A DNA stretch of 64,000 nt from Rhodothermales bacterium. GTDB lineage: Bacteria > Bacteroidota > Rhodothermia > Rhodothermales > UBA10348. The position numbers were made by a program, and so were the translations under genes. Below the pieces are notes generated by a model. It saw only the letters and a list, made by a program, of their open reading frames with translations, was not told the DNA's origin and ran no database searches. Below, piece by piece: positions 8,296 through 8,504 of this stretch. The stretch's first letter is position 1. The number at the start of each line of letters is the position of its first letter. The stretch lies in contig JAEPNP010000001.1 in NCBI GenBank assembly GCA_017643395.1, forward strand, positions 1,013,806-1,077,805, written 5' to 3'.

Positions 8296-8382
8296 GGAGA
8301 GGTGCCCGAGTGGCTGAAGGGGCACGCCTGGAAAGCGTGTGTGCCGGCAACGGTACCGTGGGTTCGAATCCCACCCTCTCCG
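8296..8382 (+). tRNA. tRNA-Ser (anticodon GGA)
   Basis: An 87-nt class II tRNA. The acceptor stem is GGAGAGG/CCTCTCC with discriminator G. The anticodon stem CACGC/GCGTG encloses loop CTGGAAA (anticodon GGA, codons UCC/UCU). A long variable arm and the T-loop GGTTCGAATCC are present. CCA is not encoded. The discriminator base is also the first base of the palindromic element that follows. Confidence 0.95.
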
Positions 8383-8504
8383 CAACAAGTTTGGCCAGGC
8401 GCTCCGCGCCCCAGCGTGGGGCCGGGGCCGAGCCGAGCTTGCTCGAGCGAGTGTGCCGGCCCCACGCTGGATCCGGCCAAAGGCCGGATGGCCAAACTTG
8501 TTGC
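8382..8504. repeat. 123-bp nested palindrome able to form a closed four-way junction
   Basis: The outer arms are perfect inverted repeats of 16 bp (8382-8397 and 8489-8504; GCAACAAGTTTGGCCA and its complement). Between them, with no spare bases, are three hairpins: 8398-8410 (GGCGC TCC GCGCC), 8411-8470 (15-bp perfect arms CCAGCGTGGGGCCGG/CCGGCCCCACGCTGG around an inner CGAGC-TT-GCTCG hairpin), and 8471-8489 (ATCCGGCC AAA GGCCGGAT). No reading frame in it looks coding. It resembles neither a terminator nor a known IS end; it could be a mobile palindromic element of the REP/BIME kind. Confidence 0.85.

What the first reader, a model, noticed from the sequence alone, without database searches (positions are those of the whole stretch)
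8382..8504. 123-bp perfect palindromic cloverleaf directly after tRNA-Ser
A 16-bp perfect outer stem encloses three perfect hairpins (5, 15 and 8 bp) with no unpaired bases between them, forming an ideal four-way junction in single strand or as a cruciform. Such precision over 123 bp is not expected of a terminator. It begins on the last base of the tRNA, a favoured target for integrating elements. It could be a miniature mobile element, a structured RNA or a protein-binding site.
Basis: seen in the sequence. Interest (0 to 1): 0.65.

Follow-up and report, generated by a model that had tools for sequence, protein, structure and literature searches.

The report
Four-way-junction repeat linked to tRNA-Ser
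Right behind a serine tRNA gene sits a 123-base stretch that folds into a near-perfect cloverleaf; the same fold with different letters follows other serine tRNA genes in related bacteria, so it looks like a conserved, probably transcribed version of the puzzling 'tRNA-linked repeats' of E. coli, whose function is unknown.

Summary
The palindrome is real (one base is counted twice) and far beyond chance. It is not an isolated curiosity. A 92% identical but truncated copy follows tRNA-Ser(TGA) in the same genome. The same four-way junction, starting on the tRNA's G73-C74 but with largely different letters, follows 7 of the 12 tRNA-Ser genes of this genome and two congeners, tRNA-Ser(GGA) in two other genera of the family, and tRNA-Ser(TGA) of a Bacteroidales genome. 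Helices covary, including one that frames a tandem G-A. Behind it come a spacer and a hairpin ending in AATCCC; in 6 of 9 relatives this continues into a full or nearly full copy of the tRNA's own 3' end (A58-C74), in the window only 7 nt remain. This is the anatomy of E. coli tRNA-linked repeats (TLRs; Rfam RtT), and weak RtT matches follow tRNA-Val and tRNA-Arg in this genome. The window element does not match the RtT model, so I call it TLR-like: a new variant of a known kind. Most likely it is a structured 3' trailer of pre-tRNA-Ser; transcription, processing and spread by recombination are inferred. Presence is patchy; two congeners lack it at the orthologous site. Function is unproven.

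The parts
8296..8383 (+). tRNA-Ser(GGA) gene, between frr (ribosome recycling factor) and yicC
   Evidence: ARAGORN; Rfam, ends 8382; Pfam of the neighbours
8367..8383 (+). A58-C74 block of the tRNA (AATCCCACCCTCTCCGC; tRNA numbering from recall), the stretch that is duplicated downstream in relatives
   Evidence: sequence; copies in relatives
8382..8504 (+). 123-nt cloverleaf (four-way junction)
8382..8397 (+). outer helix, 5' arm (its first two bases are G73-C74 of the tRNA)
8489..8504 (+). outer helix, 3' arm
8398..8410 (+). hairpin 1 (5 bp, loop TCC); in the GCT, G019 and G006 relatives this position holds a hairpin followed by T-rich sequence
8411..8470 (+). hairpin 2, long arm (15 bp) with structured apex
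8428..8453 (+). apex of hairpin 2: GA/GA internal loop, bulged A, C-G-A-G stem, CUUG loop; covaries between relatives
8471..8489 (+). hairpin 3 (7-8 bp, loop AAA)
8505..8518 (+). C-rich spacer (CGCCTCCCCCCCAA); C-rich at the same place in the eight complete relatives of the family, not clearly so in L173
   Evidence: ('next' lines)
8519..8547 (+). GGGAT-hairpin-AATCCC, counterpart of GGGATGTGCGAGCGAAGCGAGCAAATCCC in G002 (5' side divergent in G019 and G006)
8542..8548 (+). decayed remnant (AATCCCA) of the duplicated tRNA 3' end
   Evidence: one search compared with relatives

Best explanation
The cloverleaf is the structured first part of a tRNA-linked repeat (TLR-like) unit behind tRNA-Ser(GGA). 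SHOWN: the anatomy tRNA - four-way junction - spacer - hairpin ending in AATCCC - (in most relatives) copy of the tRNA's A58-C74; recurrence behind four serine isoacceptors in one genus, one in two other genera of the family, and in one Bacteroidales genome; covariation of helices; patchy presence. INFERRED: it is co-transcribed with the tRNA as a 3' trailer, since it pairs on from G73-C74 and this copy has no terminator-like site before it. The long helices would force endonucleolytic (RNase III, RNase Z or RNase E type) rather than exonucleolytic 3' maturation and release a stable small RNA, as E. coli TLR RNAs are released. INFERRED: units spread between tRNA-Ser genes by recombination through the shared tRNA 3' end, and arrays grow and shrink by the same homology.
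For: Second copy, 92% over 79 of 123 nt, directly after tRNA-Ser(TGA) in the own genome. Exact 15-18-nt copies of the tRNA 3' end, starting at A58 or one base before, begin 127-156 nt behind 7 of 120 tRNA genes of three congeners; an eighth (L045) matches 15 of 17 nt, which scores 11, no more than the best shuffled control (11). Four-way junction with outer helix of at least 11 bp and 3 branches: 9 of 10 tRNA-Ser loci, against 4 of 106 non-Ser tRNAs and 7 of 72 shuffles; also L173, Bacteroidales, by inspection. Covariation: 15 of 53 pairs changed on both sides in tRNA-Ser(GCT) orthologues, 0/500 shuffles, slid controls at most 3; apex 3 of 7 pairs, 28 of 28 cells paired. Empty orthologous sites: tRNA-to-yicC 33 and 35 bp in two congeners, 326 bp here. 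Of 10 hits of the terminal-hairpin motif in 27 family genomes, 9 lie behind tRNA-Ser (G001, G002, G019) and 1 (G013) has no tRNA in its locus. RtT (RF00391) matches behind tRNA-Val and tRNA-Arg in the own genome, 30.6 and 29.7 bits, aligned from the GGAUGAGAACC end to GAGUAAUCC plus tRNA 3' end. Literature passages: PMC8144298 (TLR definition, transcribed examples), PMC8250186 (tandem GA framed by a covarying helix in the tyrT repeat), PMC4986893 (RtT RNAs seen on Northern blots in A. pleuropneumoniae).
Against: The window copy itself keeps only 7 nt of the tRNA 3' end, and RF00391 does not match window 8296-8709 at E up to 10. No expression data for it. Two of the three genomes of this genus lack it at the tRNA-Ser(GGA) site, so it is dispensable. 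The second copy in the own genome is truncated. The 10 Ser loci were chosen after seeing the fold. The GCT covariation rests on three sequences and a structure derived from them; most of it lies in the long arm (9 pairs), while the outer helix has one both-sides change and 5 of 10 pairs broken in one row, perhaps by alignment. In one search the number of further pair types is no higher than in shuffles (410/500).
Confidence: 0.72

Rival explanations
1. A gene-less integrative mini-element: a trans-acting tyrosine recombinase of the T-loop type integrates circles that carry the tRNA 3' end (A58-C74), leaving the duplicated 3' end as attR. The hairpins would be recombinase arm sites or folded single-strand substrates.
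For: The exact copies begin at A58 or one base before, as the T-loop class of tRNA integration sites does (recalled). Behind tRNA-Arg(CCG) of G000 (L069) the terminator after the displaced copy aligns better with the terminators of the empty sites in G001 (12.0) and G002 (15.0) than the one next to the tRNA does (4.0, 10.5; shuffles against G001 at most 7.5), as if the unit had brought a new 3' end and terminator; two units lie there in tandem. Empty Ser-GGA sites in G001 and G002.
Against: No integrase was seen linked to a unit, but none was searched for systematically. RNA-type covariation and the tandem GA motif have no obvious use at DNA level. E. coli TLRs behind 5S rRNA are transcribed RNAs (PMC8144298 passages).
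Confidence: 0.15
2. A transposable element of the IS1634 kind, or its preferred target, explains the palindrome.
For: An IS1634-family transposase gene follows the unit in G002 and in G019 (NF033559, E 2.7e-50 and 1e-57; positions).
Against: Seen at only 2 of the units; for the window the next gene is yicC, the other flanks were not scanned for IS genes. The transposase starts roughly 160 and 255 nt behind the displaced tRNA copy, not at its edge.
Confidence: 0.04
3. An elaborate transcription terminator or exonuclease block of tRNA-Ser without any trans function.
For: In tRNA-Ser(GCT) of three species, and in G019 and G006, hairpin 1 is followed by a T-rich stretch; many other tRNAs have a plain hairpin-plus-T terminator in that place.
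Against: The window copy has no terminator-like site between 8200 and 8740. A terminator needs neither a closed four-way junction nor a conserved tandem-GA apex.
Confidence: 0.09

Closest known systems
tRNA-linked repeats (TLRs) of E. coli, RtT RNA (Rfam RF00391), tyrT 178-bp repeats
   Same: Directly behind a tRNA; unit ends in a copy of the tRNA's 3' 17-19 nt that starts at A58/A59 (E. coli tyrV region; relatives); tandem arrays in relatives; hairpin-rich; tandem GA motif framed by a covarying helix.
   Different: A 118-173-nt closed four-way junction stands between the tRNA and a shortened terminal hairpin; RF00391 does not match it; in the window the tRNA copy has decayed; host belongs to Rhodothermales, not to Enterobacterales or Pasteurellaceae.
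RrA/RrB/RrF sRNAs (TLRs behind 5S rRNA, PMC8144298, passages read)
   Same: Structured repeat behind a stable-RNA gene with a copy of its 3' end; transcribed by read-through and processed.
   Different: rRNA context, dual terminators, GGA motifs for CsrA; no four-way junction described in the passages that I read.
RtT RNAs Arrc20/Arrc21 of Actinobacillus pleuropneumoniae (PMC4986893, passages read)
   Same: Rfam RtT family, next to tRNA genes, expressed (Northern blots).
   Different: Filed under RtT, whose model the window element does not match; described there as upstream of tRNA genes.
Miniature inverted-repeat elements / REP-type palindromes
   Same: Short, non-coding, perfect inverted repeats, patchy presence.
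   Different: No copy away from tRNA genes found in the own genome; the direct repeat in relatives is the tRNA 3' end.

Membership tests
tRNA-linked repeat (TLR) | lies directly downstream of a tRNA or rRNA gene | tested here: met
   starts on G73-C74 of tRNA-Ser(GGA)
tRNA-linked repeat (TLR) | 3' end of the unit carries 18-19 bp identical to the 3' end of the upstream tRNA | tested here: not met
   window keeps only AATCCCA (8542-8548). In sister units the copy is an exact 17-mer (G001 Ser-CGA, G002 Ser-TGA)
tRNA-linked repeat (TLR) | one to five units per locus, transcribed and processed RNA | not testable with these tools
   one unit in the window; no expression data
RtT RNA (RF00391) | score over the Rfam gathering cut-off (45 bits) | tested here: not met
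   no match in window 8296-8709 at E up to 10; own-genome Val and Arg units 30.6 and 29.7 bits, also below the cut-off
RtT RNA (RF00391) | helix framing a tandem GA (PMC8250186) | tested here: met
   apex 8428-8453, covarying helix
intrinsic terminator | G+C-rich hairpin followed by a T run | tested here: not met
   0 sites in 8200-8740
MITE | dispersed copies at unrelated sites with target-site duplication | tested here: not met
   exact arm matches only behind two tRNA-Ser genes of the own genome
tRNA-integrated element (tyrosine recombinase) | direct repeat of the tRNA 3' end plus a recombinase gene in cis or trans | tested here: inconclusive
   repeat present in relatives; recombinase not searched systematically

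The most novel reading that the evidence does not exclude
tRNA-linked repeats are a widespread class of gene-less selfish or regulatory elements that persist by re-creating the tRNA 3' end from A58 to C74. In Bacteroidota they have evolved a distinct, covarying four-way-junction RNA that grows out of the tRNA acceptor end (G73-C74) and couples tRNA-Ser maturation to release of a structured small RNA.
Probability: 0.3. Interest if true: 0.8.

Novelty: new variant of a known kind. Interest (0 to 1): 0.55.

Why it matters
E. coli's tRNA-linked repeats were first described in 1978 and had no known function when PMC8144298 was written (passage read). Units with the same anatomy in Rhodothermales, in a second Bacteroidota family (f25) and in Elusimicrobiota supply what E. 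coli alone cannot: independent lineages, covariation, empty sites and a conserved tandem-GA motif. That makes the question whether these are RNAs, processing signals or mobile tails directly testable.

Tried and rejected
Rfam at gathering cut-off gave only tRNAs in the window. A dispersed REP-type repeat was rejected: the arm pattern gives exact matches only behind two tRNA-Ser genes, and its hits with up to 2 mismatches (17 forward, 15 reverse, exact ones included) do not exceed the reversed-pattern control (23, 17). A virus origin: 2 hits in viral contigs, both outside tRNA-Ser context. Casposase- or retroelement-type duplication was considered from the A58-C74 block (recalled) and left without evidence. 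DNA-hairpin selection from GNA triloops was considered; loops are mixed (GNA, AAA, CUUG and others in the printed folds), so it does not decide. A larger-gap search for more units in 198 phylum genomes gave only G109, already known. Of the 17 stretches, 8 have the copy behind a tRNA-Ser (L168, L170-L173, L176, L178, L182), 2 show the same kind of unit without a tRNA call (L174 at a contig start, L183), and 7 have no tRNA within 600 bases and look like chance.

Full report
OBSERVATION. The palindrome is there. The 16-nt outer arms (8382-8397/8489-8504) and the 15-nt arms (8411-8425/8456-8470) are exact, as are the 8-bp hairpin 8471-8489 and the 5-bp hairpin 8398-8410. Folding energy is -99 kcal/mol as RNA, z -11.1, 0 of 200 shuffles as stable; as DNA z -11.0. 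The 30-nt apex of the long arm is itself structured. The element starts on G73-C74 of tRNA-Ser(GGA), which lies between frr and yicC. There is no terminator-like site between 8200 and 8740 and no Rfam family at gathering cut-off other than tRNA in the window.

SECOND COPY AND EMPTY SITES. In the own genome (G000) the search finds one other copy: 92% identity over 79 of 123 nt, directly after tRNA-Ser(TGA) and then broken off. In two congeners, G001 (by its contig the Rhodothermales MAG SS_bin_36) and G002 (by its contig the Bacteroidota MAG OFTM201), the orthologous tRNA-Ser(GGA)-yicC spacer is only 35 and 33 bp and holds no cloverleaf, against 326 bp here.

THE SAME ARCHITECTURE ELSEWHERE. 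I collected 120 distinct tRNA calls with flanks from G000, G001 and G002. They include 12 tRNA-Ser genes. Seven carry a complete four-way junction that starts at the tRNA end (G000 GGA and GCT; G001 GCT and CGA; G002 TGA, GCT and CGA), one is truncated (G000 TGA), three have none (G000 CGA, G001 GGA, G002 GGA), and one is cut off by a contig end (G001 TGA). Two other genera of the family have it after the frr-linked tRNA-Ser(GGA): G019 and G006. In a fixed folding test, 9 of 10 such loci close an outer helix of at least 11 bp around exactly three branches, against 4 of 106 non-Ser tRNA downstream regions and 7 of 72 dinucleotide shuffles (the 10 loci were picked after seeing them). A Bacteroidales genome from horse faeces (L173) folds the same way after tRNA-Ser(TGA) (by inspection).

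COVARIATION. In the three tRNA-Ser(GCT) orthologues 94.9% of cells pair, and 15 of 53 pairs have changes on both sides, against a shuffled mean of 5.8, 0 of 500 shuffles, and at most 3 in slid controls. Nine of the 15 lie in the long arm; the outer helix has one, and 5 of its 10 pairs fail in one row. The apex of hairpin 2 (CUUG or CUCG loop, bulged A, GA/GA internal loop) keeps all 28 cells paired while 3 of its 7 pairs change on both sides (23 of 500 shuffles reach 3; further pair types are no higher than in shuffles). That table has four distinct rows for six elements; the G019 row (no 5' GA) and the three GCT rows (another apex) were left out. The structures were derived from these sequences, which favours them.

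THE REST OF THE UNIT. Behind the nine complete cloverleaves of the family comes a C-rich spacer and then a hairpin that ends in AATCCC (GGGATGTGCGAGCGAAGCGAGCAAATCCC in G002; 5' side divergent in G019 and G006). This continues into a full or nearly full copy of the tRNA's own 3' end in G002 TGA, G001 CGA, G002 CGA, G019, G006 and L173 (6 of 9 relatives); the three GCT units keep 9-10 nt and the window 7 nt, AATCCCA at 8542-8548 (by reading). Across the 120 tRNAs an exact 15-18-nt copy, starting at A58 or one base before and ending at C74 or three bases short of it, begins 127-156 nt downstream in seven cases (Glu-CTC, Glu-TTC twice, Val-CAC, Arg-CCG, Ser-CGA, Ser-TGA); an eighth (Ser-CGA of G002) matches 15 of 17. 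The seven score 15-18, the eighth 11; the best shuffled control scores 11. Several other rows score 11-13 and look like neighbouring tRNAs; one (L115, tRNA-Ala, score 22) copies the T-arm region 377 nt downstream without a second tRNA being called there, and is unexplained. The terminal-hairpin motif has 10 hits in 4 of 27 family genomes: 9 behind tRNA-Ser (G001, G002, G019) and 1 in G013 with no tRNA in its locus.

WHAT IT RESEMBLES. Rfam's RtT model (RF00391), the repeat of the E. coli tyrT operon, matches units behind tRNA-Val and tRNA-Arg of the own genome at 30.6 and 29.7 bits and one in G010 at 34.5 bits, which lies just behind a tRNA-Cys, and a unit behind tRNA-Ser(CGA) in f25 at 35.1 bits. 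The cut-off is 45; none of the 27 family genomes reaches it, and among 14 control genomes only E. coli matches. The alignments run from the GGAUGAGAACC end to GAGUAAUCC plus the tRNA 3' end. The E. coli tyrV region shows the same plan: three further copies of AATCCTTCCCCCACCACCA and a C-GA-GC..GC-GA-G segment. PMC8144298 (passages read) calls these tRNA-linked repeats: 22 in ten E. coli loci, 18-19 bp identical to the upstream RNA's 3' end, no known function, an early claim retracted, three of them transcribed and interacting with Hfq and CsrA. PMC8250186 (passages read) reports that covariation in the tyrT repeat reveals a helix that frames a tandem GA, the motif I see in the cloverleaf apex. 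PMC4986893 (passages read) reports RtT RNAs, seen on Northern blots, in A. pleuropneumoniae and widespread in Pasteurellaceae; PMC2965389 (passage read) finds rtT-like sequence in BIME-type elements of enterobacteria. The window element itself has no RtT match at E up to 10 and fails the 18-19-bp criterion, so I describe it as TLR-like, not as a TLR.

DISTRIBUTION. A tRNA-Ser pattern with a downstream 3'-end copy matches 16 of 394 phylum genomes: 15 in one other family (f25, genera g50 and g55) and G006; the reversed control is zero. The loci read show one to three units behind true tRNA-Ser genes (30 loci were read, a few matches had none). In G249, of 35 tRNA genes examined (Rfam lists 45), only tRNA-Ser genes show a clear A58-C74 copy; a further array matches elsewhere in G249 at the place of another tRNA-Ser-like gene. 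Similar duplications stand behind tRNA-Ser in MAGs titled as Elusimicrobiota, in a Falkowbacteria MAG (tandem units of about 68 bp) and others: 8 of 17 stretches, plus 2 without a tRNA call. A larger-gap pattern found only G109 among 198 genomes. Two viral-contig hits have no tRNA-Ser context. These searches demand exact letters, so absence elsewhere is not shown.

MECHANISM. Shown: anatomy, recurrence, covariation, patchiness. Inferred: the cloverleaf is transcribed as the 3' trailer of pre-tRNA-Ser, pairs on from G73-C74 and so shields the 3' end from exonucleases; an endonuclease (RNase III, Z or E type) must open it, releasing a structured small RNA. Spread between tRNA-Ser genes by recombination through the identical 3' ends is inferred from the GGA/TGA pair of G000. 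The main rival is site-specific integration at the T-loop. The duplication boundary fits it, and behind tRNA-Arg the terminator after the displaced copy, not the one next to the tRNA, resembles that of the empty sites. No recombinase was seen linked, and none was searched for systematically. IS1634-family transposase genes follow the unit in G002 and G019, which I record without building on it.

LITERATURE LIMITS. 'tRNA-linked repeat' returned one relevant paper in the held library; RF00391 together with RtT returned none, though PMC4986893 shows that the name alone is used. The listings, of which I opened four papers for passages, showed no report of such units in Bacteroidota. The library lacks most subscription journals, so I do not claim that none exists.

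Noticed in passing
L092 (G002:C22, transposase on the - strand from about 1704 down) and L184 (G019:C96, from about 3020 down): IS1634-family transposase genes roughly 160 and 255 nt behind the displaced tRNA copy in two different genera; the G019 one appears interrupted by another IS-like insertion.
   Followed up: partly
L069 (G000, downstream of tRNA-Arg CCG): Two tandem RtT-like units with nearly identical cores but different terminators; the terminator behind the displaced tRNA copy resembles those of the empty sites in G001 (L141) and G002 (L137).
   Followed up: partly
L115 (G001, downstream of tRNA-Ala GGC): A 22-nt exact copy of the T-arm region (not the acceptor end) starts 377 nt downstream, with no second tRNA called there.
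   Followed up: no
L038 and L046 (G000, downstream of tRNA-Ser TGA and CGA): Repeats of the type GTGGAAT..ATTCCAC and related units fill the intergenic space (by eye); perhaps a separate repeat family of this genome.
   Followed up: no
window 12409-14412 (+): Replicative helicase (DnaB-like) reading frame that appears to carry an in-frame intein-like insertion (by eye).
   Followed up: no
window 8550-8709: The rest of the tRNA-yicC spacer holds further G+C-rich hairpins (GCACGCGAAGCGTGC, GGGGGGAGCGAAGCGACCCCCC); the two congeners have only 33-35 bp in all.
   Followed up: no
L170 (Falkowbacteria): tRNA-Ser(CGA) followed by three further copies of its 3' end (the last with a change) in tandem units of about 68 bp, each with two hairpins; perhaps the smallest unit of this kind.
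   Followed up: no
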